This document shows positions 4,379 through 21,700 of a stretch of 44,590 bases of DNA, in pieces (position 1 is the stretch's first letter; each line of letters starts with the position of its first letter). A program made the translations under genes and the position numbers. The notes under the pieces are model-generated. The model was not told the origin of the DNA. It saw nothing but the letters and a program-made list of their open reading frames with translations, and ran no database searches. The DNA comes from Rhodopirellula sp. GTDB lineage: Bacteria; Planctomycetota; Planctomycetia; Pirellulales; Pirellulaceae. Location: assembly GCA_024644085.1 (NCBI GenBank), contig JAHELS010000027.1:1-44590 (forward strand). The letters are read 5' to 3'.

Positions 4379-4425
4379 GGTGTCACCTGAAACCGGCCGA
4401 TGGGTTCGATCGACCGCGGGAGAAG

Positions 4426-5259: not shown

Positions 5260-5343
5260 GGCGGGAATTCGTTGGGAATGAAAAACAGGAACTGACTATC
5301 GGTTACTTGCCGTCCCGCTGAGAGAGACGTGCAATGCTTTGAA

Positions 5344-5604: not shown

Positions 5605-5871
5605 CGCCGTGCCTGCTGAGGGAGGAAATTGCAGTCTTGCGTCGTGAAGCCCTCATTATAGAGGGAAATGCGGATGGTCGAGCCGGTTTGATGCGAAGTA
5701 TCCACGCACACGGGGGGAAGCGGTTTGTGCCGGATCGTACGGATTATTTCACGTATGACGATCGACTCCCGCAGCGAAAGCCGGGAATTCACGCCTTCCT
5801 AACGCGCGGCGCCACGTAAAAGCTACGGTTTTTCAGAGAGGTCCCCGATCCCAACGCATTTTCGGCGCAAC
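5605..5871. other. Divergent intergenic region
   Basis: This 267-base region separates the minus-strand 86-residue protein/TatD unit from the plus-strand HEAT-repeat unit, so it must hold promoters for both. The minus-strand -10 element is described separately. I see no clear plus-strand promoter and no credible gene; the short frames here lack coding character. Confidence 0.6.
5650..5665 (-). promoter_or_regulatory. TATAAT -10 element framed by a 5-bp inverted repeat
   Basis: On the minus strand the consensus TATAAT occupies 5655-5660. It is flanked exactly by CCCTC and GAGGG arms, forming a 16-bp palindrome-like element. A start of transcription near 5648 would give a leader of about 44 bases before the ATG at 5604. 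The -35 region is weak (TCGACC with a 15-base spacer). The framing arms could be an operator. This is a pattern match only. Confidence 0.35.
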
Positions 5872-7413
5872 ATGCAAGGTCTTGAACTTACATACGAAAC
5901 ACTCGGCGCGACGCGGAACGAAGCCGCGGTTGACGTGTTGATTCTTGCCCTGCAAGACGACGATTCCGCGACCCGCCGGCTGGCGCTCAACGCCTTGATG
6001 TTGCGGTCCGAGCCGCGCTGTCCCGAGCTTGTTCTGGAGAATTGGGACAACTTGCAAGCCGATGATATCCGCGTGCTGCGGCGAAAGAAGCAGTGGATCG
6101 AATCGACGGTCGCCGAGTGTCTGCAAGGATCGGGCGAATCGGTGTTGACCGCCGTCGCAGCTGCCGAAAGTTTGCAATTGACTTCAGCGATGCCTCACCT
6201 GGTCCTGTTGGCCGAATCGAACGCTTCACGCTCGATCCGCGCTCAGGCCGCATCGGCTGTCCTTGAGATGGTTGGTCGTCTTGGTGCGGATGCCCGATGC
6301 GACCGAGACCAGCCGACGCTTCGCGGTCCGATTCTCGCCCGGCTCGCCGATTCGGTTCGACGGTTTTCGATGCATCGCAACATTGATCTCGTTGACGCGT
6401 ACCTCGTTGTTTCCACCTGGGGTGACGGCGATCTTCGCCAGATGTTGGCCGATGGTGGTGCAGAGATGAACCTGATCTGTGATCGTTTAACGAAAAGCGA
6501 GCGATCCGGCGTGATCGACTTGCTGGCAGGCTTCTTACGAAGAAAAAACATTCCTTCGCGGATCGCACAAATCATTCAGTCACGCAACGATGAGCCGTTT
6601 CGCGATGCATTGCTGCGTAAAATCAGTGCCGATCCATCCGCGAGCACACTGAAGAATCTCCGGCAGATCGGCATGCCGGAATGTTGCCGCGGCGGAGAAG
6701 AAGCCATCAGCGCGATCGCCCCCGATTATCGCGCTCCGCTTGTGCATCTTTACGTGGCCTCGAGCAGCGACCCGCTTGAAGCGTTGCACGTGATCGCTGC
6801 GACCATCGAGAGGGGTGGCCCGAATTGCAACGCCGCCGCGGCAGCGTCACTTTCGCGCTGTGCGTTGCCGGAAACCGACATTTGGCTCAGAGCCGCGTTG
6901 CCGGTCGCCGAGGGTGACGAGTCGACGATCCGCGCCGACGACAACGCGCGTCTATTGAAACGGCTGATCGATTTGCTCGAGCACAATGACACCAGTGTCG
7001 TGAAAGGTGTACGCCGTGTCCTCGAGCCGCTGCACGCCGACGCGATGTTGCCACGTTTTCAATCGCTCCGACCACGAAGCCGCCATCGTCTCGGCAGCAT
7101 CGTGATGATGATCGATCCGGATGCCATCAACCGCGTCCAAGACGCATTGCGGCACCCGGTCTTGCGAAAACGGCTTGAGGCAATCGCAATGGCCGATGCT
7201 TTAGCCGTGGTCGATCTGCTGTCGGACTCATTCGCCCACATCGTTCGCGAGGACCACCAGGAAGCCCGAATGCAGGCTGCCGAAGCGATGTCGCAGGCCG
7301 AAGGCGAATTCACGCTGCAGCTGTTGAAAGAACTGATCGATTTGCCGGAATGCCCTGTGCGTGACGTGGCTATCCAGGCGATCGATAAACGCGAAAAAAA
7401 CTGCGCCGGTTAA
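5872..7413 (+). CDS. HEAT-repeat protein
   Basis: The 513-residue protein is built almost entirely of helical pairs of HEAT type. Typical units are seen at the N terminus (AAVDVLILALQDDDSATR and the following helix), around 85-125 and 330-400, and again at the C terminus (about 465-505), where the pattern of a helix, an Asp/Glu turn and an Arg-containing second helix recurs. There is no signal peptide and no membrane segment, so it is probably a cytoplasmic scaffold. The ATG at 5872 is the only sensible start before the first repeat. A small one-TM protein gene begins 19 bases after the stop, suggesting a two-gene unit in which the HEAT protein might dock at the membrane through its neighbour (inference). 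No enzymatic motif is visible. Confidence 0.8.
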   Translation: MQGLELTYETLGATRNEAAVDVLILALQDDDSATRRLALNALMLRSEPRCPELVLENWDNLQADDIRVLRRKKQWIESTVAECLQGSGESVLTAVAAAESLQLTSAMPHLVLLAESNASRSIRAQAASAVLEMVGRLGADARCDRDQPTLRGPILARLADSVRRFSMHRNIDLVDAYLVVSTWGDGDLRQMLADGGAEMNLICDRLTKSERSGVIDLLAGFLRRKNIPSRIAQIIQSRNDEPFRDALLRKISADPSASTLKNLRQIGMPECCRGGEEAISAIAPDYRAPLVHLYVASSSDPLEALHVIAATIERGGPNCNAAAAASLSRCALPETDIWLRAALPVAEGDESTIRADDNARLLKRLIDLLEHNDTSVVKGVRRVLEPLHADAMLPRFQSLRPRSRHRLGSIVMMIDPDAINRVQDALRHPVLRKRLEAIAMADALAVVDLLSDSFAHIVREDHQEARMQAAEAMSQAEGEFTLQLLKELIDLPECPVRDVAIQAIDKREKNCAG

Positions 7414-7432
7414 ACCACACGAGCCCATTGCC

Positions 7433-7849
7433 ATGTTTTCAAGCCTAACAACATTCCATCTGCTGGCCGAAACCCGCATGGCCGAAGTCAGCATGCAATA
7501 CCGTGAAGATGTGGCCAGCAGTGATCCGTCCGTATTCTGGTACCTGTTGATTCCGATCTTCGCCGTCTCAGTTGGCTTCGCGATCTATCGAATCGTCGAC
7601 CGCGAACCGAGGGTCGTCAACACGCCGCTGGGGATGCTGCATGAAATTTGCCGCGTGCACCGAATCAATAAGAGCGGACGGTACCTGCTTGATCAAATCG
7701 CTGAGGAAGCTGGACTCGAACAACCCGCCTCGATGCTGCTGGGGGTAACCCAATTCGAACATGCGGTCGAGAAGGCCGGCCAACACATGAAGTACGATCG
7801 GCGACAACAAACGACACTGGGCATGCTTCGTCGTCGCCTCTTCTCTTAA
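7433..7849 (+). CDS. Small single-TM membrane protein
   Basis: A 138-residue protein I do not recognise. One hydrophobic helix lies at residues 35-55 (WYLLIPIFAVSVGFAIY). A soluble C-terminal domain of about 80 residues follows, with mixed helices (LGMLHEICRVHRI, then YLLDQIAEEAGL), ending LGMLRRRLFS. I chose the ATG at 7433, 19 bases after the HEAT gene stop; the frame extends back into the HEAT gene to 7361, but that part would overlap coding sequence. Close spacing suggests co-transcription with the HEAT protein. Confidence 0.7.
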   Translation: MFSSLTTFHLLAETRMAEVSMQYREDVASSDPSVFWYLLIPIFAVSVGFAIYRIVDREPRVVNTPLGMLHEICRVHRINKSGRYLLDQIAEEAGLEQPASMLLGVTQFEHAVEKAGQHMKYDRRQQTTLGMLRRRLFS

Positions 7850-7950
7850 TGCCCCGATAGCCGCCGAGATTGTTGCTCGGTATCTTTTGCCAGTCCGAAT
7901 AATGGGACGCTCTTCTACGTTCCAGTGATTCCAAGGCATCTGATCTACGC

Positions 7951-8856
7951 ATGAGCTCTATTTCTCTTCCGCGAAAAACACTTGGCCGGACCGGGCTCGA
8001 AGTGACGCAGCTCGGCTATGGCAGCATGGGTTTGCGAGGGCCACGCACGTGGGGCGTGCGCGTCGTGGACGATGAAGCATCCGAGCGATTCCTGCATGCC
8101 GTGCTCGACGCCGGAATCAATTTCATTGATACCGCGCCGGACTACGGAATCAGCGAGGAGCGAATCGGCAGATACATCAGCTCGCGCCGCGAGGAGTTTA
8201 TCCTGGCGACCAAGTGTGGCTGCGTTTACACCCAACATGAAGATCATCTCGAAATTGACCATCACTGGAACAAGGAGGTAATCCAGCGGAATCTCGATGT
8301 GAGTCTCCAGCGTTTGCGAACCGATTTCGTCGACATCCTGCAATTCCACGGTGGCGATGCGGAAACGTTGCAACGCGAAGGTCTGATCGATCTGCTTGAA
8401 AATTTTCGTTCGCAAGGCCTTGTGCGCTTTATCGGTGTCTCAAGCAAGCTTCCGAAGTTGCCGGCGCTGATCGACCTCGGCGTCTTCGATACATTCCAAA
8501 TCCCTTATTGCTGTCTCACGCCGGAGCACGAGCCGTGGATCACCCGCGCCGCGGAGTGCGGTGCCGGCATGATCATTCGCGGCGGCATTGCGCACGGCGG
8601 ACCTGACGCGGAAATCGAAAGGCCGGCGCTCCAGAACGTCTGGGAGCGATCGAGGCTCGACGAAGTTCTGCCCAGCGACATGACACGTGCCGAATTGATA
8701 CTGCGGTACACGTTGTCGCATCCGCATTGCCACACGACCATCGTCGGAACATGTAACCACGATCATCTGGCGGAAAACCTAGCCGCTGCGAGCGCCGGAC
8801 CGCTGCCCGCCGAGTTGTACGACGAGGTGACGCGACGGGTCGCGGAAACCGGTTAG
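7951..8856 (+). CDS. Aldo/keto reductase
   Basis: The 301-residue protein is a canonical (alpha/beta)8 aldo/keto reductase. The N-terminal LGRTGLEVTQLGYGSMG strand pair is typical, and the catalytic tetrad is complete: D60 and Y65 (FIDTAPDYG), K88 (ILATKCG) and H133 (DILQFHGG). Near the C terminus the cofactor-binding strand is represented by HTTIVGTCNHDHLAENL, as in NAD(P)H-dependent members. It should reduce a carbonyl substrate with NADPH in the cytoplasm, but the substrate cannot be inferred. It lies 101 bases after the small membrane protein gene and converges on the giant ATPase gene with only 25 bases between stops. Confidence 0.93.
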   Translation: MSSISLPRKTLGRTGLEVTQLGYGSMGLRGPRTWGVRVVDDEASERFLHAVLDAGINFIDTAPDYGISEERIGRYISSRREEFILATKCGCVYTQHEDHLEIDHHWNKEVIQRNLDVSLQRLRTDFVDILQFHGGDAETLQREGLIDLLENFRSQGLVRFIGVSSKLPKLPALIDLGVFDTFQIPYCCLTPEHEPWITRAAECGAGMIIRGGIAHGGPDAEIERPALQNVWERSRLDEVLPSDMTRAELILRYTLSHPHCHTTIVGTCNHDHLAENLAAASAGPLPAELYDEVTRRVAETG

Positions 8857-8881
8857 CCCGACCATCGGCCCCACTTACCAA

Positions 8882-11800
8882 TCAGCCCTGCCCGCCCGAT
8901 TTTCCCCGTGCGGACTCGAAAGAGTTTTCGACCTGGCGGTAATTCTCAAGCATCGCATCGAGTTGCGTTCTCAACCGCTCCAGGTCGCGACCGTTGTCGA
9001 TCGACTCTTCGAGAATTGGCCGCAACCATTCCTGCATCAAGTGGAATTGTCCCTTGACCAGGTCGGCGATCACGCGAGGCACCTTGTGCTGCACCAGCAC
9101 TTTTTGATCCGGTGGTGAGAGGGCTTGTTGCTCGCTGACTTTCTCGAGTTGGTGAGTGGTCGACTGCAACGTTTCGGCCAACTGTGATACCGACGCCGTC
9201 AAGCTTTGCCGCAACGAATCGACACGTGCGTCCATGCGCTCCTCCGCCCCGTCGCTGCCCACCGCGATTGCCCGCGAGATCACCTGGCGAATCGATTCGA
9301 GCCCATCGCGCATGGATGCCAGTTGTCGCATCAGCTGGCCCGCCTGGTCTTCGCTGTCCATTCCCGACATCCGCACGCTTTCGACGTACGCGTACTTGAT
9401 CGCGTCCCACCGCTCTTTTTCTTCCGTATTGAGAATTCCCATCAACTCTTTGAACTTCAATACGTTCGCTTCGTTGTCGGTCGTTAACGTCTGCGCATCC
9501 TGTTCGTAGTTGCTGACGATCAAGGTTTGCAATTCCGCATCGTTCATCACCGCCGCAACACGCTCGGCGATACGATTCATGTTCCGGTAACTTCCCTGAA
9601 GTTTGAAGGGAGGTTCGGTGCGGTAGGCGTCTGCCTGGGCGGCGCTGCGGATGTAGGCGCGGTTGACTCGCAGGACGACATCGCGGACACGCAACAGCTT
9701 TCGCATTATTTCGAACATTTCGCGAACCTGGTCCATCGACAGGTTGCTTTGCAGTTCGATTCCCTCGATGGAATCCCGCTGGGCCGCGTGGATGATCGCC
9801 CGGGCATCTTCCGGCGGCGCGGTTGCCAATGTCGCGAGCGTCCGATTACTGGTCAAGCAGTTTTCGAGGTAGCTCATCTCGAACGATTCGGCGGAGTCGC
9901 CGATGATTTCGCCGAGATTGTATACATCGGCGCGATTGGAAAGCATGTCGGGAACTTGGAAACGCTCGCCGCTCTCGGTATAGGGGTTGCCCGCCATCAC
10001 GACTGCCACGCGTCGACCGCGTAGATCGTAGGTTCGCGTTTTCCCGTTACGCACGCCTTCGATCTTTCTTGTCGCATCGCACAAAGAAATAAATTTCTGC
10101 AGAAGCTCCGGATTGGTGTGCTGGATATCGTCGAGATACAGCATCACGTTGTCACCCATTTCCAGAGCGAGATTCAATCGTTCGATCTCTTCGCGGGCCG
10201 CGGCATTGGGAGCCTCGGCCGGATCGAGCGACGTGACTCCGTGGCCGATCGCCGGACCATTGATCTTCATGAAAACGATGCCGAGCCGATTGGCCACGTA
10301 CTCCATCAACGTCGTCTTGCCGTAACCGGGCGGCGAAATCAACAGCAACAAACCCATTCGGTCCGTTCGCTTGTCGGCCCCGGCGGCGCCCATCTGCTTT
10401 GCCAGGTTGTCGCCGATCAACGGCAAATAGACTTCGTCCAGGAGGCGATTGCGAACGAAACTCGTCAACACGCGCGGTTTGAATTCGTCGAGCCGCATCG
10501 CTTCGCGTGATTCGTCCACCACACGGTTCTTGGTTTCATGGAGACGGCGAAATCTCGGGACGACATCTTCACGATACGCGCGAACGCGGCGAAGGATCTC
10601 GTGGAAATGAAGGTTCATCTCACCCCGCACGATCCGCGGGTGGTTGCCCGCCATGTCCTCGAGCTTCCGTGCAATCGTTGCTTCCGAGCGTCTCATAGAA
10701 CCTGTCCCACCGGAAAGCACGGTCCACGCCAACTCGTCTCGGTAGCCGATGGCAGGGTCGATCTCTTCCTCTCTGGCGTGTGTTTTCAGGTACGCATCGA
10801 CCCAGTTCCGCGCGAGAATGAATGCACGAATTGGATCCGATTCATTTTTGAGAACGCTGGACAGCAACTTGTCACGGTCTACATCCGGGATCGCCGCCGA
10901 GAAGGCCTCAAACAAATCTGCTGCTTGCCCGCTCACGACTGGTTTTTTCGGGGCATGCGTTAACTCGTCGAACAGGTACGCCGCAATGCGGCTCGGGGAG
11001 GTATCCGCATCGAAAACGGGTCCCCATTGTTCACGGTCCGATTCGGCCAGCTCGGTCAGCCGCTGGCGAAACTCGACCGCCGGTCTGGCGTTGGGGTATG
11101 CCTGGGCCAACTTGGCAAAGCCGCCGATCCAATCGATCATCGCTTTGCGACTTTTCGCATTGAGCAACTTGTGGAACCACAGCAACGCTGCGGCGCGAAT
11201 CGTCGGTGCGTGTCGCAGCAGCCCGATCGACGAATCGATTTCTACCAATGCCGAAAGGATCGTCGCGGCGTCGGTATCGTGAACCCCCTTTGCGTAGCCT
11301 TCGTCGAAGCGTCCGCCGCTCTGCGACTGAATCCAATTTGCGTTGATGGTCGATGGAAATGATTCCAGGGTCTCAAACAGGTCAACGGCAAGGAACTCTG
11401 CACGGTAGACTTCGCGGTTCTCGCTGACCAGTTCCTGGTTCCAGAGATCGCGGGCCGCCAACAGAGCTTCGTCATGAAGCTTTTCGAAGAATTGTGTCCC
11501 GGTCAGGTGCAGGCTCAAATCGCCTCCGCGCAGCACGGTCGTCAAATCGAGCGGCTGGGTGTTGACCGCGAAACGCTGGTTCCCCAGCCGGATTACGTCG
11601 CCCCCGTCTTCGTACAGGTCCTGGCGATCCTTGAGTTGCCGCGTGGCATCTTCGCGAATCGTCTTCAACCGACTTTCGAGATCCTCGACGCGGACGGCAT
11701 CATCGAGCTCGTCAAGCTGGGTGATGATATCGCGGACCTTTTCGACCATCAGATCGCCGGCGAAATACGCGGCAATCTCGTCGGTCGATTCCATCTTGTT

Positions 11801-14119
11801 GACGCGTGAGTCGACCCCCTTGAGGATTCGGTCGGCTGCGGAAGCAAGTGACTCGGCGCGGCGGTTGCGCTTTTCAATCAGCGCCACCTTTCGCGATTCA
11901 AACGCTGCGTACACGTCTTCGCGGCGCTGGGCCAATTGAATGACAAACTCGTCAAACTCCGCAAACCGGCCCTCAAGTTCTTCAAGCTGGACCATCAGCC
12001 GCGTCAGGTATTCGTCGCATCGCTGCGGCGAATCGCAAACGTCGAGGTATCCGGCCGTGGTTTGTTCCAGCAATTTCAGCTGTGATGCAAATTCGGCCTT
12101 CCCTTCGACGCTGACCAGTTCGCTTACACGTGCCTTGAGCGAGCTGCGGACGCGATTGAGCGAGGCGAACACGTTGCCGATCGAATCAATGATCTCGGTC
12201 CGTTTGGTCGCGTCGTCGATTCGCAGATTGCTCACCGTCTCGGTAAGCAGCTCGAGTTGGGCCGCGGTGGCGTCAATTTCTTCTTCGAGTTTCTTCGCCT
12301 CTGCAACGGTCGATACGGTATCAACCTGTTCTCCGGCCTTTTGAACACGATTGACATAGGGATCGAGCGATCCCGGGGTCAGCAGGAAATCGACGCAGCG
12401 GCGGCTCAACCGCTCGGCCCGTTCGGCGGTTGTTGCCTGTAATTCTTCGATCACAGATTCGTCGACGTACCTCAGCTCTTTCAAGCCGAGTGCGTGTCCA
12501 CGCTGTTCCCGCAGGCTGGCGAGCGATGAAACGTAGTCGTCGATGGATTCAAAGCGGCTTCGTTCGATCGATTTGATCAGCGACTCGATCGCATCCTGTA
12601 CCTGCTTGGTCCGCTGCTGGGTGTCACGGCGGACGCGTACTACTTTTTCGAATTCTTCGACCGCGGCGCTGGCCGCCTCGTGGATTTTTCGCACCGGGTC
12701 GGCAAGGTTTTTCGTCTCCGACTTGTCAATCCAGAAATAGCTGTCGAGCACGTCGGACGATTTCTTGACCAAATCGACGTACAACCCTTCGTAGCTGTCG
12801 TCCTTGTCGATCAACTGCAGAATCTCGGTGCATTCGGCCATCCCTCGGACAATTTCTTTGTTGCCGATCTTAAACAGCAGCGAATCCGTCTGGTTCTCCG
12901 GCACGAAGTTGGCACCGGTGAAAGGGGTCTGCCAGATCTGGACGGCGTGATGCTTTTGCGGATCGTCCTGGGTCTGGAAACAGACCATCTCGCCGCCTTC
13001 GAACAAGGTTTGGCCATGACAAACCAGCGGCGTCTCGACGGTTTGGCGGATCACGTTGTAGCGAAGCTGGACGTAGGTCCCCGACTCGGGATTATAAAAC
13101 AGGTAGAGGAAGTCTTCGCCGTTGGACGAAGCGACGGTGCGTTGGTATCGCATGTCGCTCAAGCCGTGATCGAAGCGTTTGAATTCGCCCGTCTGCAAAT
13201 AGTAGCCGCCTGGAAAGATCAGTCCCTGGTCGCCGGGCAGCATCACACAGGAGTGCTCGATTTCGTCGAGGCGCATCGCCTGTTGGATCTTTCCATTGAA
13301 TACCAGGTATCGGAACTTGTCCTCCTGGTACGGTCTTACTTTCAGCAGGATCAAATTGCCGATGATCGTGTAGTAGATTTCGGCATCGTCAAGCGTTTGG
13401 TCTGAATTGTCGACCGGTTCGGCGTAGATCCCGCCGCCGCTGTCGGTGTTGTTCTCGACCTTGATGGTCAGATCACCGCCAACCGTTTCGACAAAGACAG
13501 CATCTTCGATCGAAATGTGCGGGTGCGCACCATAACGATGCTGGTCGCGAGTCGTACGTGTCCAACGGAATTCGTGTTGCGGCGGGTCGCGGACCTCGTG
13601 CTCGCTGCGGTTGTCGATATACTCGAGGGCGTCCGGTGTGACCCGCCACTTGAACGATTTGATGTCGCGATGTGTCTTGCCGACCTGGAAAACCATGTGC
13701 AACATGGGCCCGGTGCGAAAGAACCTCGCGAAACGAGTGCCCTTGTAGAATCGATACAGTTCATGAAAGTCGCTGTTGAATCGTTCGTCGCCGACCAGTC
13801 CGAGCGATGATTCATGAAACTGGTGATCGCTGAAGCGATAGGCCGAAAAGACGTCTGCCAATCCGATGTCGGTTTTCAGTCCGAATTGGACGTTGTAACC
13901 GAACAGGAATTCGTCACCGACGGCTACCAGATCCCTGGGGATACAGTTGTGCTCGGTCGTCACCCGTTCGGTGGCGATCAGAACGGTTTCGATATTGCCG
14001 AAGACTTCCGCACGCTCTTCATTCAGCTCGGCGAGCCGTGAACGCAGGTCCGCTGCCGCATCGCGGAGACGGTTGCGTAGAACCTCGTAGGTGCCGGCAG
14101 CGAGTTGAGTCTCAGTCAT
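8882..14119 (-). CDS. Giant AAA+ ATPase ('DNA repair ATPase', DUF3686-like)
   Basis: The product has 1745 residues. An N-terminal beta-rich region (about 1-480) carries the motifs of the DUF3686-type 'DNA repair ATPase' family as I remember it, for example HMVFQVGKTHRDIKSFKW and LPGDQGLIFPGGYYLQTG. Long charged coiled-coil helices follow (about 480-880), then a helical linker. An AAA+ module has Walker A SPPGYGKTT with K1268 and Walker B VMLYLDDIQH with D1330-D1331, followed by a GNPYTESGERF segment like the sensor region of MoxR-type AAA+ proteins. The C terminus (about 1540-1745) is again coiled coil. There is no signal peptide or membrane segment. The DNA-repair label is only an annotation habit. 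It follows the flotillin gene by 107 bases that contain a strong hairpin. Given its neighbours, it may work as a membrane-associated remodelling ATPase (inference). Confidence 0.9.
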   Translation of the reverse strand: MTETQLAAGTYEVLRNRLRDAAADLRSRLAELNEERAEVFGNIETVLIATERVTTEHNCIPRDLVAVGDEFLFGYNVQFGLKTDIGLADVFSAYRFSDHQFHESSLGLVGDERFNSDFHELYRFYKGTRFARFFRTGPMLHMVFQVGKTHRDIKSFKWRVTPDALEYIDNRSEHEVRDPPQHEFRWTRTTRDQHRYGAHPHISIEDAVFVETVGGDLTIKVENNTDSGGGIYAEPVDNSDQTLDDAEIYYTIIGNLILLKVRPYQEDKFRYLVFNGKIQQAMRLDEIEHSCVMLPGDQGLIFPGGYYLQTGEFKRFDHGLSDMRYQRTVASSNGEDFLYLFYNPESGTYVQLRYNVIRQTVETPLVCHGQTLFEGGEMVCFQTQDDPQKHHAVQIWQTPFTGANFVPENQTDSLLFKIGNKEIVRGMAECTEILQLIDKDDSYEGLYVDLVKKSSDVLDSYFWIDKSETKNLADPVRKIHEAASAAVEEFEKVVRVRRDTQQRTKQVQDAIESLIKSIERSRFESIDDYVSSLASLREQRGHALGLKELRYVDESVIEELQATTAERAERLSRRCVDFLLTPGSLDPYVNRVQKAGEQVDTVSTVAEAKKLEEEIDATAAQLELLTETVSNLRIDDATKRTEIIDSIGNVFASLNRVRSSLKARVSELVSVEGKAEFASQLKLLEQTTAGYLDVCDSPQRCDEYLTRLMVQLEELEGRFAEFDEFVIQLAQRREDVYAAFESRKVALIEKRNRRAESLASAADRILKGVDSRVNKMESTDEIAAYFAGDLMVEKVRDIITQLDELDDAVRVEDLESRLKTIREDATRQLKDRQDLYEDGGDVIRLGNQRFAVNTQPLDLTTVLRGGDLSLHLTGTQFFEKLHDEALLAARDLWNQELVSENREVYRAEFLAVDLFETLESFPSTINANWIQSQSGGRFDEGYAKGVHDTDAATILSALVEIDSSIGLLRHAPTIRAAALLWFHKLLNAKSRKAMIDWIGGFAKLAQAYPNARPAVEFRQRLTELAESDREQWGPVFDADTSPSRIAAYLFDELTHAPKKPVVSGQAADLFEAFSAAIPDVDRDKLLSSVLKNESDPIRAFILARNWVDAYLKTHAREEEIDPAIGYRDELAWTVLSGGTGSMRRSEATIARKLEDMAGNHPRIVRGEMNLHFHEILRRVRAYREDVVPRFRRLHETKNRVVDESREAMRLDEFKPRVLTSFVRNRLLDEVYLPLIGDNLAKQMGAAGADKRTDRMGLLLLISPPGYGKTTLMEYVANRLGIVFMKINGPAIGHGVTSLDPAEAPNAAAREEIERLNLALEMGDNVMLYLDDIQHTNPELLQKFISLCDATRKIEGVRNGKTRTYDLRGRRVAVVMAGNPYTESGERFQVPDMLSNRADVYNLGEIIGDSAESFEMSYLENCLTSNRTLATLATAPPEDARAIIHAAQRDSIEGIELQSNLSMDQVREMFEIMRKLLRVRDVVLRVNRAYIRSAAQADAYRTEPPFKLQGSYRNMNRIAERVAAVMNDAELQTLIVSNYEQDAQTLTTDNEANVLKFKELMGILNTEEKERWDAIKYAYVESVRMSGMDSEDQAGQLMRQLASMRDGLESIRQVISRAIAVGSDGAEERMDARVDSLRQSLTASVSQLAETLQSTTHQLEKVSEQQALSPPDQKVLVQHKVPRVIADLVKGQFHLMQEWLRPILEESIDNGRDLERLRTQLDAMLENYRQVENSFESARGKSGGQG

Positions 14120-14163
14120 GGGCGTGAAGGTAAACGGTGAACAGGTGGCGGCCTAAATCAAGC

Positions 14164-14203
14164 CGGATCGCTGCGGGTGCCAGTGCACACCCACAGCGAT
14201 CCG
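14164..14203 (-). terminator. 16-bp intercistronic hairpin between flotillin and AAA+ genes
   Basis: The arms 14164-14179 and 14188-14203 pair along all 16 positions with an 8-base loop. The single C/A mismatch on the plus strand becomes a G-U pair in the minus-strand transcript, so the RNA stem is unbroken. It is GC rich. No T-run follows in the direction of transcription, so it is not a textbook intrinsic terminator. It may instead attenuate read-through, mark a processing site, or protect the 3' end of the flotillin message. Confidence 0.6.
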
Positions 14204-14226
14204 TAACCTGTCCGCCTTGGAAATTC

Positions 14227-16359
14227 TTAAGCATTCTTTCCGTTGCTTGCCGCGGCGGATGCGGCCAGCAGCCGTCCCGCTTTCTGGTCGGCAATGTTGG
14301 CGGTTCCGGCCATGCTCAGCAGGCTGGTCAGTTGCGTCCGCACGTCGTCGGTGCTCGCCAATCCCATCATCTTCGCAATCAGTGCGGCGATCGACAGGTC
14401 TTTCACGCCATCGGTGTCGAGGTTGAACTGTTTGATCAGCTCGGACAACTGGTCCTTGAAGTATTCCGCATTCCCGTCGAAGAACGTGTCTTTGATGTCG
14501 GTAGCGACTTTGCTGTTGTAGACGAAGCGATCGATTGCCTTGCCTCCCTTGACCGCCGAAGTGATCTGGTCGAAGAATTCTCCATCTCCGCCGACGATAT
14601 CGATACGTGCGCTCTTGAGGGCGTCTCCGACGACGCCGGCTTGGCTTTCGGCGATGCCTCGTTGAGCGTTGATAGCGGCAATCTCGACTTCCTTCTCTTT
14701 GTCCAGTTCGAGTTTGAACTCTTCGTGTTCTTTCCCGACGCTGTCGAGCTGTTTCATCGCTTCGGCTTTCTCGGTGATGCCGGTCGCCTCGCTGTGGTAC
14801 TTCTCGCGTGCGACGTTGGCTTCGGCCAGGCCCTCCTTTTCGATCGCGTCGGCCTTGGCTTCGATCCCCTTGGCTTCGGCGATTGCTTTTTTCTGCAGCA
14901 CGGACGCTTCGGCGGTTCCTTCTTTCTCGAGGCTGGCCGCCTTGGCCTCCTGGACGGTCGCTTCGGCCAATCCGGATGCGGCGGACTTGGCCGCTTCGGC
15001 TTCGGCGAGCATTTTTGTCGCAGCGGTTTCTTTCTCCGCGGCGTCCCTGTTCGCTTCGGCTTCGATGCGAATCTTTTCGGCCAGCAACTCACTCGCTTCT
15101 TTCTCGGCCTGCGCGAGCTTGGTTTGCCGAATCAATTCTTCCTGGGCCTTCATCTCAGCCGCGGTGACTTGCACCTTCTTGAGACGTTCGGCCGCAGCGA
15201 CTTCTTCGGTGTCTTTGATCCGTTCCTGTTCTTCGACGACGGCCCGTTCGACGGCGACGCGTTCGCGGATCACTTCCTGGATATTGCGTTTCTCGACTTC
15301 GATCGCCTTTTCCTTTTCGACATCGGCGACGCCAACGACCCGGAGTCGTTCGGTCATTTCGAGGTCACGGTCACGGCTGACACGTTCCAATTCGACGGCG
15401 TCGGTCTTCTCCTTGTTGCGCTGTGCAACCAGGATTTGACGTGACATGTTTTCCTCGGCAATTCCGAGTTCTTCGTCAGTGACGATTCTCGCGCGTTCGG
15501 ATTCAAGCCGTTGTTCTTCTTCGACCTTCTTCGCCGATGCCTGTTCGCGAGCCGTGATTTCGGCGATTTCGCGTGCCTGTTTTTCAACCGCCTCGACACG
15601 CTGTCGCTCGAGCGCAAGGATCGTTTCCTCCGCCTCGACATCCTGTTTCTTCAGCGTTTTTTCCTTGTCACGCGTGAATTGGTTCTCCTTTACCTTCTCG
15701 GTGGCTGTCAGTTCGGTGATCTTTTTGATCCCCTCGGCATCGAGGATGTTGGTCGGGCTCAACATCTGCAGCGGTGTTTGTTCGAGATAGTCGATTGCCG
15801 CGTCATCCAGCCGATAACCATTCAGATCGGTTCCGATCACCTTCAGGATTTCGTCTTTGAATTTGTCACGCTGGTCATACAGATCGACGAAATCGAATTG
15901 CTTCCCGACAGTTTTCAGTGCTTCACTGAATTTCGCGTCGAACAATTCGCGCAGGGTATCGATCTCACTGCACCGCTTGGCACCGATCGATTGGGCGACT
16001 TCCTTCATCTCTTCCTGCGTGTTGTCGACGCGGATGAAGAACGCCACCTTGATGTCGGCACGGATATTGTCCTGGCAAATCAGACCCTCGCTCCCCTCAC
16101 GGCTGATCTCGAAGCTCTTCAGCGTCAAGTCCATGAAGTCATAGCGATGGAACAGCGGCACAATGAATTTGCCGCCGGCAGTGGTGACATCAAGGCCGCC
16201 GAGGCCGGATTTGACGATCGCGCGATCGGGGCCGACGACGATGTAGTACTTCTTGAACGTGGTCAGCGCCGCGATCACGGCGAAGATCAACACGTACAGA
16301 GCGATCATGGGACCCGAGGTCCAATCAACGGACTGGGCCAATATAAAACTGAACGTCAC
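14227..16359 (-). CDS. Flotillin-family SPFH protein (YqiK-like)
   Basis: The 710-residue protein has one N-terminal membrane helix (residues 17-35), an SPFH/band-7 domain (about 36-200) and a long coiled coil (about 215-560). The coil is extremely rich in Glu, Ala and Lys, with the repeating AEA(K/N/E) pattern of flotillins. A C-terminal globular part of about 130 residues follows. Flotillins oligomerise at the inner membrane and scaffold membrane microdomains. The start is GTG and overlaps the TGA of the upstream YqiJ-like gene by four bases, so the two are translationally coupled, as in the yqiJ-yqiK pair of Escherichia coli. The giant AAA+ gene lies directly downstream on the same strand, making a three-gene set. 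Identity is secure; function in this organism is not known. Confidence 0.93.
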   Translation of the reverse strand: MTFSFILAQSVDWTSGPMIALYVLIFAVIAALTTFKKYYIVVGPDRAIVKSGLGGLDVTTAGGKFIVPLFHRYDFMDLTLKSFEISREGSEGLICQDNIRADIKVAFFIRVDNTQEEMKEVAQSIGAKRCSEIDTLRELFDAKFSEALKTVGKQFDFVDLYDQRDKFKDEILKVIGTDLNGYRLDDAAIDYLEQTPLQMLSPTNILDAEGIKKITELTATEKVKENQFTRDKEKTLKKQDVEAEETILALERQRVEAVEKQAREIAEITAREQASAKKVEEEQRLESERARIVTDEELGIAEENMSRQILVAQRNKEKTDAVELERVSRDRDLEMTERLRVVGVADVEKEKAIEVEKRNIQEVIRERVAVERAVVEEQERIKDTEEVAAAERLKKVQVTAAEMKAQEELIRQTKLAQAEKEASELLAEKIRIEAEANRDAAEKETAATKMLAEAEAAKSAASGLAEATVQEAKAASLEKEGTAEASVLQKKAIAEAKGIEAKADAIEKEGLAEANVAREKYHSEATGITEKAEAMKQLDSVGKEHEEFKLELDKEKEVEIAAINAQRGIAESQAGVVGDALKSARIDIVGGDGEFFDQITSAVKGGKAIDRFVYNSKVATDIKDTFFDGNAEYFKDQLSELIKQFNLDTDGVKDLSIAALIAKMMGLASTDDVRTQLTSLLSMAGTANIADQKAGRLLAASAAASNGKNA

Positions 16360-17108
16360 GATTGCGTCTCCGGTTGAAGATGAGTGACTTTGTAAATGCG
16401 TTTATCCCGGTCGAAACCGATAATCCGAACTTCCGTCCCCTTCGTGATGTGCGCGCCATCGGTGCGAACATTCAATAGCAACGGCGATGCATTGGTCCGA
16501 AACTTGGCTTGGCCAAATTCCGGTGTCGCCTCCGTCGTGCAAATCTCACATGTCGCCCCAAGCAATTTCTGCGCACTGTAGGATGGCGGATCGACGAAGT
16601 AGCCCAGCATCGGCTGGGTGACCAGCTTGGTGATCCCGGTGGCTATCACGAAATTGCGGATCGCCAATAACACGCTCGGTATCCAAACGGGGTCGTAACG
16701 ATTCGTGTCGTAGCTGTGCCAGAGCCCATAGGAAACACTCCAGAAAGCAACGGCAAATACTCCGCCCCACAACACGACCGGCACCCGACCAAAATTCGTC
16801 CAACGGACCGTCGCGCCCCCAAGGCCGTGCAGGAAATCAACGTCAACGTGGGCGCCGTGGCCGGCGTCAACGTCCGGCATTTCAACACCGGGAATATCGA
16901 CCGTCGGGACATCCACATCCGGGACATCCAACGCCACATCGATATCGACACCCGGATCGAGATCAACATCCGGAACGTCGAAGCCCAGGTCGATCAGACC
17001 GATCAACGCCAGAATCGTGTACAGGACCAACAGGCATACCAGGATCGACGCGGGCCAAACCGGTCCGACGAACATCCGTTCGGCAAGTTGCAGGAGGGAA
17101 TCGGGCAC
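16356..17108 (-). CDS. YqiJ/NfeD-like inner-membrane protein with OB-fold and Asp-rich repeat
   Basis: The 250-residue protein has a first membrane helix at about 18-41 and two more at about 108-130 and 142-165. A C-terminal beta-rich domain (about 183-245, with GTEVRIIGFDRDKRIYKVTHL) fits the OB-fold of NfeD/YqiJ proteins, the usual partners of flotillins. Between helices 1 and 2 lies a striking low-complexity stretch (44-91) of DVPDVD-like units with 14 Asp residues. The start is GTG at 17108; a later ATG at residue 12 is possible. The TGA overlaps the flotillin GTG. The 124 bases upstream (17109-17232) must hold the operon promoter, though I see no clear consensus there. Confidence 0.85.
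   Translation of the reverse strand: MPDSLLQLAERMFVGPVWPASILVCLLVLYTILALIGLIDLGFDVPDVDLDPGVDIDVALDVPDVDVPTVDIPGVEMPDVDAGHGAHVDVDFLHGLGGATVRWTNFGRVPVVLWGGVFAVAFWSVSYGLWHSYDTNRYDPVWIPSVLLAIRNFVIATGITKLVTQPMLGYFVDPPSYSAQKLLGATCEICTTEATPEFGQAKFRTNASPLLLNVRTDGAHITKGTEVRIIGFDRDKRIYKVTHLQPETQS
16836..16979 (-). repeat. Asp-Val repeat tract inside the YqiJ-like gene
   Basis: Residues 44-91 of the YqiJ-like protein consist of degenerate DVPDVD/DIDV units. The DNA shows matching degenerate repeats built on GACGTnCCnGAnGT. The tract lies between the first two membrane helices and contains 14 Asp plus one Glu, with no Lys or Arg, giving a highly anionic loop. Confidence 0.75.
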
Positions 17109-17232: not shown

Positions 17233-18759
17233 TCACTCACCGCCTCGCGGCCTCCCGAACCAAGGGGAAACGGCGCGGTCGAGCAGGTTTCGCGTGATCT
17301 GGTCTACCCGCGCATCCGGGCCATGCGGACGGGACCAATGCGACCACGGCAATTGATGCCCCGGCGGGCTGGACAATCCCTGGCACCACCAGATCGTCGA
17401 CGCGTTGAAGACAAAGTTGTCCCTCGGCCCGGGATAGAACGTCGCGGTCCATCGCTGCGGATTCACGCCGCCCTGCAGTGCGGTGCCTTCGGCAACAATC
17501 TCGAGTCCTTCGATATCGGGCGGATCACCGTGGTATTCCCAGCCGATCAACCCCGGGATCCGATCACCATTTTTCATTCCGGTGCCCGTGTAAATCCAAT
17601 GCTCGGGCCGTGTACAGATCCAGTCGCCGCCGCCGTTGACCGGATCGACGTTTCGAGCCCCCATCAAGTAACCCTCGTCGGGACCGCGATGCGGAAACGG
17701 GCCATGCTCTTTTTCACGCTGCATCGCCCATTTGTAGTCGCCACCGTACGGCCCGCCGCGATACAGGATCCGGTTTTCCCTTCCATCACTGGCCGAGCGA
17801 AAGGGACTGACCCAGCAGACCGAATTCCCGCACAGAAACATCAGGTTCACTCCCGCGTCACGCAGTGCAACCACGCTCTTGTATTGCCGAAGGTCCCAGT
17901 ACTCGTCGTGACCAACGCTCAAGAAGGCTTTGCATTTGAGTCCGCGCGCCGGCGAGAGCATGTCGGAGTTGCTGCAGTAGGTAACGTCGTAACCCTGTTG
18001 TTCCAACCAATATGCCATTGGGAACTCGAAGCAAAGCCATTCGCCGCTGCCGACCGTTTGCGGGTTCTCGAAGATCTGCGGATACATCCCGTACGGCCGA
18101 TCAAAGCTGACGTCCGCCCAGGGACCCTGGTTACCCTTGGGGTGTGTGTAAACGGAGTCGCGATCGGGCCATTGGTTGTATGCTTGCCACGTGTTGTCGC
18201 TGCATTGAAACAGGATGTCGGCGTCGCGATCATCGCGCACGATGAACACGATGTAGCTTTGCCAGTATCCGTGTCCGGTCGAATCGGACAAGGTCGTCAA
18301 TCGGCCGATGTAAACGCCGCTTGTCCAGTTTGAAGGGATTTCAAGCGACGCCGACTTTTTCCAACGACATTCACGCAGCCGTTTCGGGCCGTGCTCAGGT
18401 ACACTTTGTTTGAATCCTTCGAGCGGGCCGATCGTTTTCATCAGCCTCGCGCCGCGGCCACCGTAGTACCCGGTGCGAAAAACTTCGATGATGAATTCCT
18501 GGGCTGGATCGGTTGAAACAAAGAGGTCGATTGTTTCGCCGGCGGCGACGCTTTGTCGCGAGCAGTAACCTTCGATACGCGACGATCGAACGCCGCCGCG
18601 CGTGTCGGTGCGAACGCGTGTTAATTGCCAATCGGTCGATCCAGCATGGGCGTTTTCGCGGGTGACCGGATTGTCGGCTGCGGCAGCGCGAGGCATTCCA
18701 AGTCCGACCGTGGCGGCCGCGGCCAAGGTGCCCTTGAGCAGTTGTCGGCGATCGGTCAC
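17233..18759 (-). CDS. Tat-exported N,N-dimethylformamidase-like protein
   Basis: The 508-residue protein begins with a twin-arginine signal (R4-R5 in DRRQLLKG, then an Ala-rich core ending PRAAAA), so it should be exported folded. The mature part resembles the large-subunit C-terminal domain of N,N-dimethylformamidase. It has an N-terminal beta-rich segment (QSVAAGETIDLFVSTD), then VYIGRLTTL, a SVGHDEYWD motif typical of this family, and a C-terminal GWEYHGDPP segment. The characterised enzyme hydrolyses dimethylformamide with a mononuclear iron centre and its large subunit is considerably longer; I cannot confirm the iron ligands here, so another amide or polysaccharide-related substrate is possible. 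The start is GTG and overlaps the TGA of the sulfatase-cytochrome gene by four bases, so the two proteins are made together. Confidence 0.75.
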   Translation of the reverse strand: MTDRRQLLKGTLAAAATVGLGMPRAAAADNPVTRENAHAGSTDWQLTRVRTDTRGGVRSSRIEGYCSRQSVAAGETIDLFVSTDPAQEFIIEVFRTGYYGGRGARLMKTIGPLEGFKQSVPEHGPKRLRECRWKKSASLEIPSNWTSGVYIGRLTTLSDSTGHGYWQSYIVFIVRDDRDADILFQCSDNTWQAYNQWPDRDSVYTHPKGNQGPWADVSFDRPYGMYPQIFENPQTVGSGEWLCFEFPMAYWLEQQGYDVTYCSNSDMLSPARGLKCKAFLSVGHDEYWDLRQYKSVVALRDAGVNLMFLCGNSVCWVSPFRSASDGRENRILYRGGPYGGDYKWAMQREKEHGPFPHRGPDEGYLMGARNVDPVNGGGDWICTRPEHWIYTGTGMKNGDRIPGLIGWEYHGDPPDIEGLEIVAEGTALQGGVNPQRWTATFYPGPRDNFVFNASTIWWCQGLSSPPGHQLPWSHWSRPHGPDARVDQITRNLLDRAVSPWFGRPRGGE

Positions 18760-21700
18760 TCAATTTCTCCCGCGACGCCATGCGACGTCAAACTTTGAAG
18801 GTACTTCACGACATCCAGCAACTGATCTTCGGTCAGTGTCTCGTCCAAACCCGCGGGCATGATCGAAACACTGCTCGGCGCGATCGATTCAATATCGCCC
18901 TGTGCGATTGCGATGATCTCACCGCTCGCTTGCTGGATCCGAATGTCGTCCGCCGATTCGCCGATGACGAGACCCGTGAGGGCGCGACCGTCGACCGTCA
19001 AGACTTTGTGCGTCTCGTAGTCCCGGACGATACTCGCCGACGGAAACACCATCGACTCCAACAGATCAATTGCCGATCGATTTGCACCAATGGTCGACAA
19101 GTCGGGACCTACCGCTTTACCCTGGTCCCCGATCCGGTGACAGGAACTGCATTTGGCTTTTTCGCTGTGGAAGACCTGTTTTCCGCGCCCGGCATCGCCT
19201 TGATCGAGGCGATCACGCAACACCTGCAATCGTAGCAGCTTTGTTTGGTGATGCTGTTTGAGCCGGTCGAGAAGCCGATTGGCGCGGTCCAGCGTTTCGG
19301 TCGGAAATCGTTTGACAACATCCGAGAACTCATGCACCTCGATTGATGAAAAGGAGTCAGCTGACTCCAGGGATTCCAACAGGGCCTCGGCAGCGTTGTG
19401 GTTCACGTTGCGTTGAAAAGCACGCAGAAGTTCGCGGAGATCGCCAGGGGACGCGCTGCGAACAAGTGGTGCAACTTTCTCGAGTTGCCCAGCAGTCAGC
19501 TGCGACACTCCCAACAGTCTTGCCGCAGCGGCGGCAGCCGTCGGCGAACCCGATTCGCGATACGTTTGCAGCAGTCGCTCGAACATCTGTGGCTCAAGCT
19601 TTGCGGATCCTTTGACCAGCGCCGTGAGAGCCTCGGTGCGTAGCGTCATGGAACGTTTCTGATCCGCGGCCAGTGAGTCAAGTTGTGCGGCGAATTCGTT
19701 CCCCTGCATCCCCGCCACGGCCATCATTGCGCTTCGCACGGTCCTCTCGTCGGAGGACTGCAACATGTCGCGAAGCGGCCCGACCCAGCTTTGACTCGGG
19801 GCGATTCGTCCGGCACGCGCCAGGGTGCCCAGCGCCAACGCTCGCGATTCTTCGATGTCTGATTCCAGCCACTGCCCCACAAGCGACGCCATCGCGGGGG
19901 AATCGAGATACGCGTCGAGAGCATCATTGATGGTCGGATAACGCGATGGGCCCTGGCCAGTCGCAATCCAGTTGCCCACCAGGGAGGTAACATCGTCCGC
20001 CCACTGCGGATTCCTTTTCAGAATGCGTTTGAGCAAGTTGCCGCTGCTGGTGTCAAAGTTCATCAGCCCCACGGCGTCTTTGTAGGAGATGCTGCTGGGA
20101 TCGATCTGTTCGACCGCTGTCATGGCAGCGACGACGGCGCGATCGCGGAGTTTTCCATTCCAAACCTGGCTCCGCACGGCGGAGGAATCCCCGATTTCGA
20201 TGAGTGCATAGACAAGGGCGTGCTCCTCCGATCGATCGATGCCCGGACGATCCAGCGCAGCTACCAGCGAGGGAATCGCTTGACGATCACCGACCTTTCC
20301 CAGCACGGTTGCCGCCCCGCGTCTTACCGAGGCGATTGGATCGGCCAGCAGTGGCAGGATTTGGGATGCGTCCATTGCTTCGGCGAATTCACCAATCGCC
20401 CGACAGGCCGCCTGACGCACCGCCGCGTCAGCGTCCTTCAGGGCTGGCCGCAATGCTTCGCGGGCGTCCGTTCGCAAACGCTCGTTCGTCGCCATCCGTG
20501 ACAATGCCCAAACGGCGTTCCTGCGGACGCGTATGTCGCTGCGCACGATCGATGACCGCAGTAAGGGCAAAGTTTCCTCGCCGCGCGCCGCACACCGCTC
20601 GATCGCCTGCTGGCGAACCGCAAAGCGCGTATCGTTCAAGAGCTTGACCAGGGACGCGGGTGATTGTTTTTGCCAATCAATCCGCAGGCCGCGGGGATCG
20701 ACCATCGTGGTCATGCCGTCGCGACGGACACGATAAATACCGCCCAGCAGCTCCGGCTTGGCGTACTGGGAGGTCGGACAACCGCGGTAAAACCATCCGC
20801 CGGTATCGACGACTAGCAGGCTGCCGTCGGCATCCTCTAGAACATCCGTGGGATGAAATTCGCGGCTGGAAGAAGAAAGAAATTCGTGCTGGGTCACATC
20901 GTAAGTCGAACCCTTCTTAGCCAAGCCGAGTCGCACCACCTTTCCACTGTTGAAAAAGGTCGCAAACAAGTCATCACTCCAACGATGGTCCATCACACCG
21001 CTTCGGTAACGGGTCAAACCCGATACAGCGACGTGACCAAAGCGGTGCACGGGACCGAGAAGATCGCCGGTGACCTTGAGTTCGCCCAACACCCGCTCGC
21101 GATGCGGATAGGCTCCGCCGTGCAACCAGTGAACCAGGCAATCGACTCGAGGTCGGGTGTACAGAATGTTGACGGTCCCCAGCATGTCGCCCGAATCGGT
21201 AAAGTCGACTTCGACCGGGTTGTCCATTCCGCCGCCGCAATGAATCCGCGCGTCCGAGCCGTCGCCGCGGCACGAGAAAAGGTAAGAACCTTCGCGCTTG
21301 CTGGTGATGTTGCCGGCCTCATCTTTGAATTCGTGACCGTGGTACCCATCGGTCCAGTAGAGGCGCCCGTCGGGTCCGGTAAAGCAACCGTGAATGCTTG
21401 CCGCGTTTCCGGTGTATCCGAATTCGTCCACGATGATCTCGCGTTGATCGGCGACGCCGTCGTCATCCGTGTCGGTCAAACGCCAGATATTTGGTGGCGA
21501 GGCAACGTAGAGCGAGCCGTCTTGCCAAACTCCGCCCATCGGAAAGGTCATCTTGTCCGCAAACACCGTGAAGGAATCGAATCGGCCGTCGCCGTCGGAA
21601 TCGACCAAACGTCGAATCGTGTTGGGAAGGTTCTTTTCCAACTCGTCGCTGGTCATGTTCACGCCGGCGTTATTACAAACGTACAACCGGCCAATGTCGT

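What the first reader, a model, noticed from the sequence alone, without database searches (positions are those of the whole stretch)
8882..17108. Three-gene unit: YqiJ/NfeD-like protein, flotillin and a 1745-residue AAA+ ATPase
Seen: three genes on one strand, the first two overlapping by GTGA and the third following after 107 bases. Known: NfeD/YqiJ and flotillin form a membrane-microdomain pair in many bacteria. The giant AAA+ is usually labelled a DNA repair ATPase without experimental basis that I know of. Inference: the ATPase is a dedicated motor or remodeller acting at flotillin scaffolds, for membrane repair, protease or channel control, or defence, rather than a DNA repair protein. 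Its N-terminal beta-rich domain and long coiled coils would suit docking on the flotillin coiled coil.
Basis: partly seen in the sequence, partly recalled or inferred. Interest (0 to 1): 0.75.

Follow-up and report, generated by a model that had tools for sequence, protein, structure and literature searches.

The report
Giant ATPase coupled to flotillin-like scaffold
A very large ATP-driven protein, usually labelled a DNA repair enzyme, travels almost without exception with one particular kind of membrane scaffold protein whose tail differs from that of ordinary flotillins, which suggests the two work as one machine at the bacterial membrane.

Summary
Confirmed: NfeD/YqiJ-like (17108-16356), SPFH/flotillin-like (16359-14227) and a 1745-aa DUF3686 AAA+ gene (14119-8882) lie in order on the minus strand. 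The unit is in print: Ravi et al. 2024 (PMC11237479, passages) describe this operon with and without CesT/Tir-PspA. The linkage is very tight. Of 392 genomes of the window's phylum 47 carry the ATPase; all 47 carry this flotillin type beside it, and the only two such flotillins without it lie at contig ends. In 198 genomes of a second phylum (taken as Bacteroidota) the same six carry both. New here: the coupled scaffold is not a canonical flotillin. Pfam Flot (PF15975) matches 15 of 17 ATPase-less relatives, E. coli YqiK included, and 0 of 67 coupled ones, which carry another C-terminal region, kept even in two genomes where ATPase and flotillin are unlinked. DUF3686 models as a beta-propeller. 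Most likely mechanism (inferred): the ATPase docks on that tail and remodels the scaffold, sometimes with PspA, under envelope stress. Nothing found supports DNA repair. The tail switch may be one ancestral event, hence correlative.

The parts
16356..17108 (-). NfeD/YqiJ-like membrane protein, 250 aa, hydrophobic segments at 11-46, 109-129 and 141-159
   Evidence: hydropathy; hhalign of its family with E. coli YqiJ 93.7%, E 2e-7; found upstream in 72 of 92 related loci, 14 more at contig edges, 6 without
14227..16359 (-). SPFH/Band-7 scaffold of flotillin layout, 710 aa: N-terminal TM segment, SPFH domain, long coiled coil, non-Flot C-terminal region
   Evidence: Band_7 41-183; TM-like 11-42; no Flot match
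14260..14682 (-). C-terminal region (residues 560-700) found only in ATPase-coupled SPFH proteins; candidate ATPase dock
   Evidence: E<1e-5 in 81 of 81 SPFH proteins with the ATPase in the locus (14 of these 81 built the profile), in 4 of 4 with unlinked or cut-off ATPase, in none of 17 ATPase-less loci in any frame
14120..14226 (-). 107-base gap with a 17-pair stem-loop (14203-14164), possible attenuator or processing site
   Evidence: gap z -5.1 against 100 mononucleotide shuffles
8882..14119 (-). 1745-aa AAA+ ATPase (PF12458 DUF3686, PF25472 DUF7902)
   Evidence: single copy in its genome; no TM-like segment
12929..13984 (-). beta-rich N-terminal domain (residues about 46-397), modelled as a beta-propeller
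   Evidence: model block pLDDT 73-93 there, 27 strands of 3 or more residues; best PDB matches are propellers such as DCAF1 WDR, E 8e-6
11615..12703 (-). helical, coiled-coil-like middle (residues about 473-835), includes DUF7902
   Evidence: model helices, block pLDDT 41-93; DUF7902 at 584-666
9563..10348 (-). AAA+ module (residues about 1258-1519): Walker A 1262-1270, Walker B 1326-1334 with DD, sensor 1 1373-1379, R1396, GSYRNM 1509-1514
   Evidence: D1330 and D1331 invariant in 55 of 55. The names and roles of these motifs are recalled, not computed

Best explanation
The three genes encode one membrane-envelope module. SHOWN: the ATPase gene is inherited with, and nearly always placed just downstream of, a YqiJ/NfeD-SPFH pair of one subtype; the SPFH protein of that subtype has its own C-terminal region in place of the Flot domain; the ATPase has a predicted propeller, long helices and one AAA+ module with intact Walker A and sensor 1 motifs. 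INFERRED: the NfeD-like and SPFH proteins form an oligomeric scaffold on the inner face of the membrane; the cytosolic ATPase is recruited through the scaffold's special C-terminal region, contacted by the propeller or coiled coil; ATP hydrolysis by an AAA+ ring loosens, re-arranges or recycles the scaffold and, where PspA is present, the PspA layer, so that it works like Vps4 does for ESCRT-III or MoxR ATPases do for their targets, during envelope stress. Likelihood by step: dedicated partner 0.9; acts at the scaffold 0.7; disassembly or remodelling of the scaffold itself 0.5; involvement of PspA in this organism 0.3.
For: Linkage: all 47 ATPase-positive genomes among 392 of the phylum have the coupled flotillin on the same contig and strand, matched domains 123-1573 nt apart; Fisher p 7e-59, not corrected for relatedness. 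The two flotillins of this type without ATPase end 39 and 248 nt from a contig end. Six of six in 198 genomes of a second phylum. In plasmids the top 12 flotillin rows (194 bits or more) of the 40 listed (316 matched) are exactly the 12 ATPase records; the 13th has 159 bits. Tail switch. The two ATPases with no flotillin within 10 kb upstream (L058, L061) have a flotillin with the special tail elsewhere in the genome. Protein distances correlate, r 0.87 for 58 loci (not corrected for species history). PspA lies in 25 of 92 related loci; PspA (E<=1e-10) in 31 of 47 ATPase-positive against 54 of 345 negative genomes. Ravi et al. infer the same kind of process. The AAA+ module resembles CbbQ/NorQ and RuvB.
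Against: No direct interaction, ATPase or phenotype evidence; no complex was modelled. The tail switch may be one ancestral split: on an SPFH-domain tree 14 of 17 ATPase-less proteins fall outside the coupled set, the other three nest in it only with support 0.34-0.82. Pfam sees these proteins poorly: even Band_7 matches only 11 of the 67 coupled ones, so lack of a Flot match alone is weak. Two ATPase-less proteins (L131, L132) lack Flot too and the full coupled-flotillin model matches their tails faintly (2.5e-4, 8.8e-6). Three ATPase genomes (G394, G395, G397), all with the ATPase at a contig edge, show no flotillin at E<=1e-40. At this locus there is no PspA, and the genome's only PspA lies on another contig; among the 47 ATPase genomes I read PspA (E<=1e-10) beside the unit only in G142. 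Many PspA hits in the phylum are partial and weak. PspA also pairs with an ATPase-less flotillin (Rhizobium). Walker B is DD in 55 of 55, so fast hydrolysis is uncertain. No Vps4-type MIT domain was reported.
Confidence: 0.55

Rival explanations
1. The ATPase uses the scaffold only as an anchor and acts on membrane-protein clients (extraction, quality control, channel or transporter assembly), as HflKC serves FtsH or NorQ/CbbQ serve their targets.
For: AAA+ module matches NorQ (best target-normalised TM of the 50 rows listed, 0.55) and CbbQ (0.42); HflKC regulates the FtsH protease (PMC10434171, passages).
Against: Pfam reported no protease domain in the ATPase, and no recurrent client gene beyond PspA, CesT/Tir and a regulator stands at a fixed place in the neighbourhoods.
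Confidence: 0.25
2. It is a DNA repair ATPase, as annotation says, and its place beside flotillin is incidental.
For: Pfam and record names; weak RuvB_N hit (E 3.6e-5, below cut-off); RuvB leads the fold matches by E-value (1e-6).
Against: Near-absolute linkage to a membrane scaffold; no repair family among the named neighbour clusters; RuvB sequence similarity is confined to the P-loop region; target-normalised TM 0.32-0.38 for RuvB against up to 0.55 for NorQ.
Confidence: 0.04
3. It is an anti-phage defence system at the membrane.
For: Patchy distribution (2 of the 9 genomes listed for the window's family); on some plasmids; PADLOC LmuB weak hit E 5e-5 over 487-829.
Against: The PADLOC hit covers the coiled-coil region only; no match in phages and no confirmed relative in viral contigs; the recurrent neighbours are PspA, CesT/Tir and a regulator.
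Confidence: 0.07
4. The genes are only co-inherited as a cassette, and the ATPase works independently of the scaffold.
For: Genes of other kinds stand between the two in several Bacteroidota, so tight co-translation is not needed.
Against: The special tail and the ATPase stay together in the genome even when unlinked (2 of 2 cases), which a cassette alone does not explain.
Confidence: 0.09

Closest known systems
CesT/Tir-PspA + band-7/flotillin + AAA+ (coiled coil, beta-propeller) + YqiJ/YuaF operon and its abbreviated form (Ravi et al. 2024, PMC11237479; passages read)
   Same: Same three genes; [quoted passage not shown]
   Different: This locus lacks PspA. In the passages that I read, the paper calls the scaffold's tail flotillin and does not say that the coupled proteins lack Pfam Flot or that the tail tracks the ATPase; its supplements were not read.
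E. coli YqiJ-YqiK and B. subtilis YuaF-YuaG (SPFH2-NfeD2 pairs, Hinderhofer et al. 2009, PMC2636767; passages read)
   Same: NfeD-like gene followed by a flotillin; SPFH domain and first part of the coiled coil homologous.
   Different: YqiK has the Flot domain (406-530). A 3960-base Proteus ATPase query found no match in the E. coli collection (5,426 genomes) at blastn sensitivity. YuaG was not examined.
MoxR-family AAA+ (NorQ, CbbQ)
   Same: Fold of the AAA+ module; strand hairpin between Walker B and sensor 1.
   Different: Those are small proteins with VWA partners (NorQ-NorD seen titles, the rest recalled); here a giant protein with propeller and long helices; Walker B is DD.
Vps4/ESCRT-III
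   Same: An AAA+ gene beside a relative of ESCRT-III (PspA) in part of the loci.
   Different: No MIT domain reported; AAA+ clade probably different; PspA absent at this locus.

Membership tests
Ravi et al. abbreviated band-7/YqiJ/AAA+ operon | YqiJ/YuaF-type TM protein gene adjacent | tested here: met
   17108-16356
Ravi et al. abbreviated band-7/YqiJ/AAA+ operon | TM + band-7 + coiled-coil protein | tested here: met
   Band_7, TM-like 11-42, coiled coil by homology and composition
Ravi et al. abbreviated band-7/YqiJ/AAA+ operon | AAA+ ATPase with coiled coil and beta-propeller N-terminal to it | tested here: met
   (propeller by predicted model)
Ravi et al. full CesT/Tir-PspA operon | CesT/Tir-PspA dyad in the operon | tested here: not met
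   The genome's only PspA is on another contig, C273; none of the three flanking genes scanned matched CesT/Tir; CesT/Tir was not searched further
Flotillin (SPFH + Flot) | SPFH/Band_7 domain | tested here: met
   E 9.8e-12
Flotillin (SPFH + Flot) | Flot C-terminal domain PF15975 | tested here: not met
   no match in the window protein nor in any of 67 coupled proteins; present in 15 of 17 ATPase-less ones
DUF3686 (PF12458) family | match above curated cut-off over the full model | tested here: met
   643.8 bits against cut-off 25, model 1-448
MoxR-like AAA+ clade | closest AAA+ fold, hairpin before sensor 1 | tested here: inconclusive
   AAA, AAA_5, AAA_22 and RuvB_N match 55 of 55; NorQ best by target TM, RuvB by E-value
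Vps4 | MIT domain | tested here: not met
   not reported by the Pfam scan at E<=0.1
DNA repair ATPase | DNA binding or repair phenotype | not testable with these tools
   only annotation names exist; no repair family among the named neighbour clusters
Anti-phage defence system | match to a known defence family along its length, or defence neighbours | tested here: not met
   only LmuB E 5e-5 over 487-829; recurrent neighbours

The most novel reading that the evidence does not exclude
SPFH scaffolds come in two mechanical types told apart by their tails: Flot-tailed ones that work without a motor, and a motor-driven type in which the Flot domain is replaced by a docking region for one giant propeller-AAA+ ATPase that actively disassembles or re-arranges the flotillin cage, a bacterial counterpart of the Vps4/ESCRT-III cycle for flotillins.
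Probability: 0.35. Interest if true: 0.8.

Novelty: new member of a known kind. Interest (0 to 1): 0.52.

Why it matters
Prokaryotic flotillins lack a known energy source or turnover mechanism (general knowledge, recalled). A tail region that tracks a dedicated ATPase, even when the genes are unlinked, gives a direct hypothesis: which part to delete, which contact to look for, and which of a genome's flotillins is motor-driven. It would also correct the 'DNA repair ATPase' label carried by this family.

Tried and rejected
DNA repair: rejected as working model, because the linkage is to a membrane scaffold and no repair family is among the 11 neighbour clusters shared by 5 or more of 92 loci (one of the 11 has no Pfam match and looks like an antisense frame; gene calls were crude and lost some true genes). 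Defence: only a coiled-coil-region hit, nothing in phages, no confirmed relative in viral contigs. Neighbouring sulfatase and DMFA2_C genes as parts of the unit: among the 92 loci the DMFA2_C gene has a counterpart only in L048, and the sulfatase counterparts above 50% identity only in L048 and L044, so local. LexA/SOS control: a divergent HTH regulator accompanies 25 of 92 loci, all from Bacteroidota or Chlorobi by record title; of the two scanned, one has a Peptidase_S24 match and one has not. In 14 of 25 the place of the usual catalytic Ser reads E (motif recalled), so autocleavage is doubtful. Rfam: no match in the window. Sequence search of solved structures gave only AAA+ hits for the ATPase, a coiled-coil match for its middle, QmcA weakly for the scaffold profile (nothing with the single protein) and none for the NfeD family. 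In the held library no paper holds 'DUF3686' or both 'DNA repair ATPase' and 'flotillin'; the listings showed no experimental study of this ATPase. Subscription papers and preprints are mostly not held.
Full report
WHAT IS THERE. On the minus strand the window holds a 250-aa NfeD/YqiJ-like gene (17108-16356), a 710-aa SPFH gene (16359-14227, overlapping by GTGA) and a 1745-aa gene (14119-8882) after 107 bases. The large protein matches DUF3686 (24-462), DUF7902 (584-666) and one AAA domain (from 1258). It is the only DUF3686 copy found in its genome. No tRNA and no Rfam match lies in the window.

ALREADY KNOWN. Ravi et al. 2024 (PMC11237479; [quoted passage not shown] The window holds such an abbreviated operon. 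Hinderhofer et al. 2009 (PMC2636767, passages) had described the flotillin-NfeD pair.

HOW TIGHT IS THE LINK. (a) Genomes of the window's phylum, an even draw of 392 that includes the window's own: DUF3686 in 47. A profile of the coupled flotillin (A2, 15 rows) hits 64 of 392 at E<=1e-40; 49 of these reach E<=1e-179, the other 15 only 1e-50 to 1e-73 (one of the 15, G312, is a fragment at a contig end and cannot be judged). All 47 ATPase genomes are among the 49, with the two genes on one contig and strand, matched domains 123-1573 nt apart, 39 of 47 under 500 nt. The two others (G221, G252; MAGs 72 and 68% complete) end 39 and 248 nt before their contig ends, so neither shows absence. Fisher p is 7e-59, not corrected for relatedness. 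(b) A second phylum, that of G403, which I reached through L120 (Chryseobacterium indologenes, hence taken as Bacteroidota): 6 of 198 have the ATPase, the seed genome G403 among them. 16 of 198 have a flotillin at E<=1e-40; six of these score E<1e-200, and they are the same six genomes with the genes adjacent by coordinates; the other ten score 1e-67 to 1e-101 and have no ATPase match. (c) 92 loci L031-L122: 12 records of the plasmid collection (some of chromosome size) and the 80 best of 546 confirmed relatives, hence biased to similar ones. Flotillin within 2 kb upstream in 82 (81 on the same strand; L100 divergent), 8 too near a locus end to tell, 2 none within 10 kb (L058, L061); NfeD-like in 72, 14 edge, 6 none. 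(d) Of the genomes of those ten unclear loci, seven, both orphans included, have a flotillin of this type; three (G394, G395, G397) show none at E<=1e-40, each with the ATPase within 1.6 kb of a contig edge; three further genomes in that call were known positives. (e) Plasmids: the top 12 flotillin rows of the 40 listed (316 records matched) are the 12 ATPase records. Protein distances correlate (ATPase-flotillin r 0.87, 58 loci, 0 of 999 permutations as high), without correction for species history.

THE TAIL SWITCH. I fetched 15 of the 25 lower-scoring flotillins of (a) and (b) (7 of 15 and 8 of 10), plus E. coli K-12 YqiK and a Rhizobium plasmid flotillin. Seventeen of 17 have an NfeD/YqiJ-like gene beside them: L131-L145 by profile, the last two by annotation. 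A profile of window-flotillin residues 560-700 was run on the ORFs of 115 loci (L031-L122, L125-L147), 102 of which held a recognisable SPFH ORF. It hits (E<1e-5) 81 of 81 with the ATPase in the locus; 14 of these 81 served to build it, so 67 are held out. It hits four more: two from the genomes with unlinked ATPase (L126, L127) and two cut by contig ends (L129, L130). It hits nothing in the 17 ATPase-less loci, in any frame, although their SPFH parts are found at E 1e-37 to 1e-63. ATPase absence was checked genome-wide for L131-L145, at DNA level for E. coli, and only in the plasmid record for Rhizobium. Pfam Flot (PF15975) matches 15 of the 17 ATPase-less proteins and 0 of 67 coupled ones (9 of 76 rows were dropped for size). 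Profile-profile alignment of the two sets covers SPFH and the first part of the coiled coil and stops at window residue 455. So the coupled protein is a flotillin-like SPFH protein whose C-terminal part differs from Flot. Cautions: Pfam sees the coupled proteins poorly (Band_7 itself in 11 of 67); the two ATPase-less proteins without Flot are L131 and L132, whose tails match the full coupled model faintly (2.5e-4 and 8.8e-6) and may be a third or intermediate kind, L132 being also broken into two frames; and on an SPFH-only tree 14 of 17 ATPase-less proteins fall outside the coupled set while three nest in it only with weak support, so one ancestral event could explain everything.

ANATOMY OF THE ATPASE. 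Two AlphaFold models from 55-row alignments cover residues 8-1158 (pLDDT 82.4, pTM 0.52) and 1150-1745 (pLDDT 78.8, pTM 0.65). The N-terminal part has 27 strands between model residues 39 and 390 (window residue = model + 7). Its best PDB matches are WDR and kelch propellers (DCAF1, E 8e-6, target TM 0.43; KLHDC3) and most of the others listed are propeller proteins as far as I recall them; rmsd values are large. This supports the propeller claim of Ravi et al.; the blade number is not settled. Then come long helices, a mixed domain, and the AAA+ module. Its fold hits by E-value begin with RuvB (1e-6), with CbbQ and NorQ close behind; by target-normalised TM among the 50 listed NorQ is best (0.55), then CbbQ 0.42, RuvB 0.32-0.38. 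Generic AAA, AAA_5, AAA_22 and RuvB_N all match 55 of 55. The clade is left open, MoxR-like being my preference. Walker B reads LYLDDIQ in the window, both D invariant in 55 of 55, where E is usual at the second (recalled). The protein has no TM-like segment.

PspA AND OTHER NEIGHBOURS. PspA lies in 25 of 92 loci, a CesT/Tir cluster in 20, and a divergent HTH regulator in 25. On pQBR103 the unit follows yjfI-PspA-rhomboid-DUF2491-DUF350-DUF1190-glutathionylspermidine synthase-like genes. In the window's genome the only PspA is on another contig. In the phylum PspA (E<=1e-10) is in 31 of 47 ATPase genomes against 54 of 345 others, and at E<=2e-30 in 16 of 47 against 19 of 345, again without correction for kinship. 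PspA also stands beside an ATPase-less flotillin in Rhizobium. So PspA is a frequent, not an obligate, partner. No repair or defence family is among the named clusters.

MECHANISM. Best-supported: a scaffold anchored by SPFH and NfeD-like proteins, a cytosolic ATPase docked through the special tail, ATP-driven remodelling of the scaffold and, where present, PspA. Linkage, domain content and tail correlation are shown; docking, ring formation, substrate and stress role are inferred. E. coli YqiK and QmcA are predicted to face the cytoplasm (PMC10434171, passages), which fits a cytosolic motor. PspA rods have a weak ATPase of their own, and the authors hold PspF to be dispensable for its membrane remodelling (PMC11746142, passages), so a Vps4-like partner would be an added layer. 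The main rival is client remodelling at the scaffold.

VERDICT. Real and well linked; the operon is known, so the locus is a new member of a known kind. The matched switch of scaffold tail and ATPase is the new and testable part.

Noticed in passing
window 14164-14203 (-): 17-pair GC-rich stem-loop in the flotillin-ATPase gap; 22 of 60 gaps examined (window and 59 loci) fold with z below -3 against mononucleotide shuffles. Possible attenuation or processing that sets the scaffold/ATPase ratio.
   Followed up: partly
25 loci, e.g. L031:2583-3368 (-), L060:3912-4622 (-): Divergent HTH_3 regulator upstream of the unit; S24-like C-terminal part in some, with E at the place of the usual catalytic Ser in 14 of 25.
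   Followed up: partly
L131:1934-4072 (+), L132:1766-3766 (+): ATPase-less SPFH proteins with PspA and an NfeD-like gene upstream, without Flot and with only faint likeness to the coupled tail: a possible third or intermediate tail type.
   Followed up: partly
window 10127-10132 (-), ATPase residues 1330-1331: Walker B has DD rather than DE in 55 of 55 relatives; slow hydrolysis or switch-like use possible.
   Followed up: no
L057, L062, L066, L071, L121: In several Bacteroidota loci other genes stand between flotillin and ATPase while the order of the unit is kept.
   Followed up: no
window 17233-23345 (-); L048:568-6743 (+): The sulfatase-DMFA2_C pair upstream of the unit recurs in the same order in L048 (Rubripirellula), not elsewhere among the 92 loci.
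   Followed up: no
L052:9857-19819 (+): ATPase open frame of 3320 aa, about twice the usual length; one member of alignment A5 carries ankyrin repeats in the AAA+/C-terminal part.
   Followed up: no
L035 (plasmid pQBR103): The unit rides on a large Pseudomonas plasmid directly after a yjfI-PspA-polyamine ligase-like cluster.
   Followed up: no
L124:1598-2281 (-) and 4024-9000 (-), i.e. G000:C273: The genome's PspA lies in the same 9-kb stretch as a large NRPS-like open frame (judged from its translation only).
   Followed up: no
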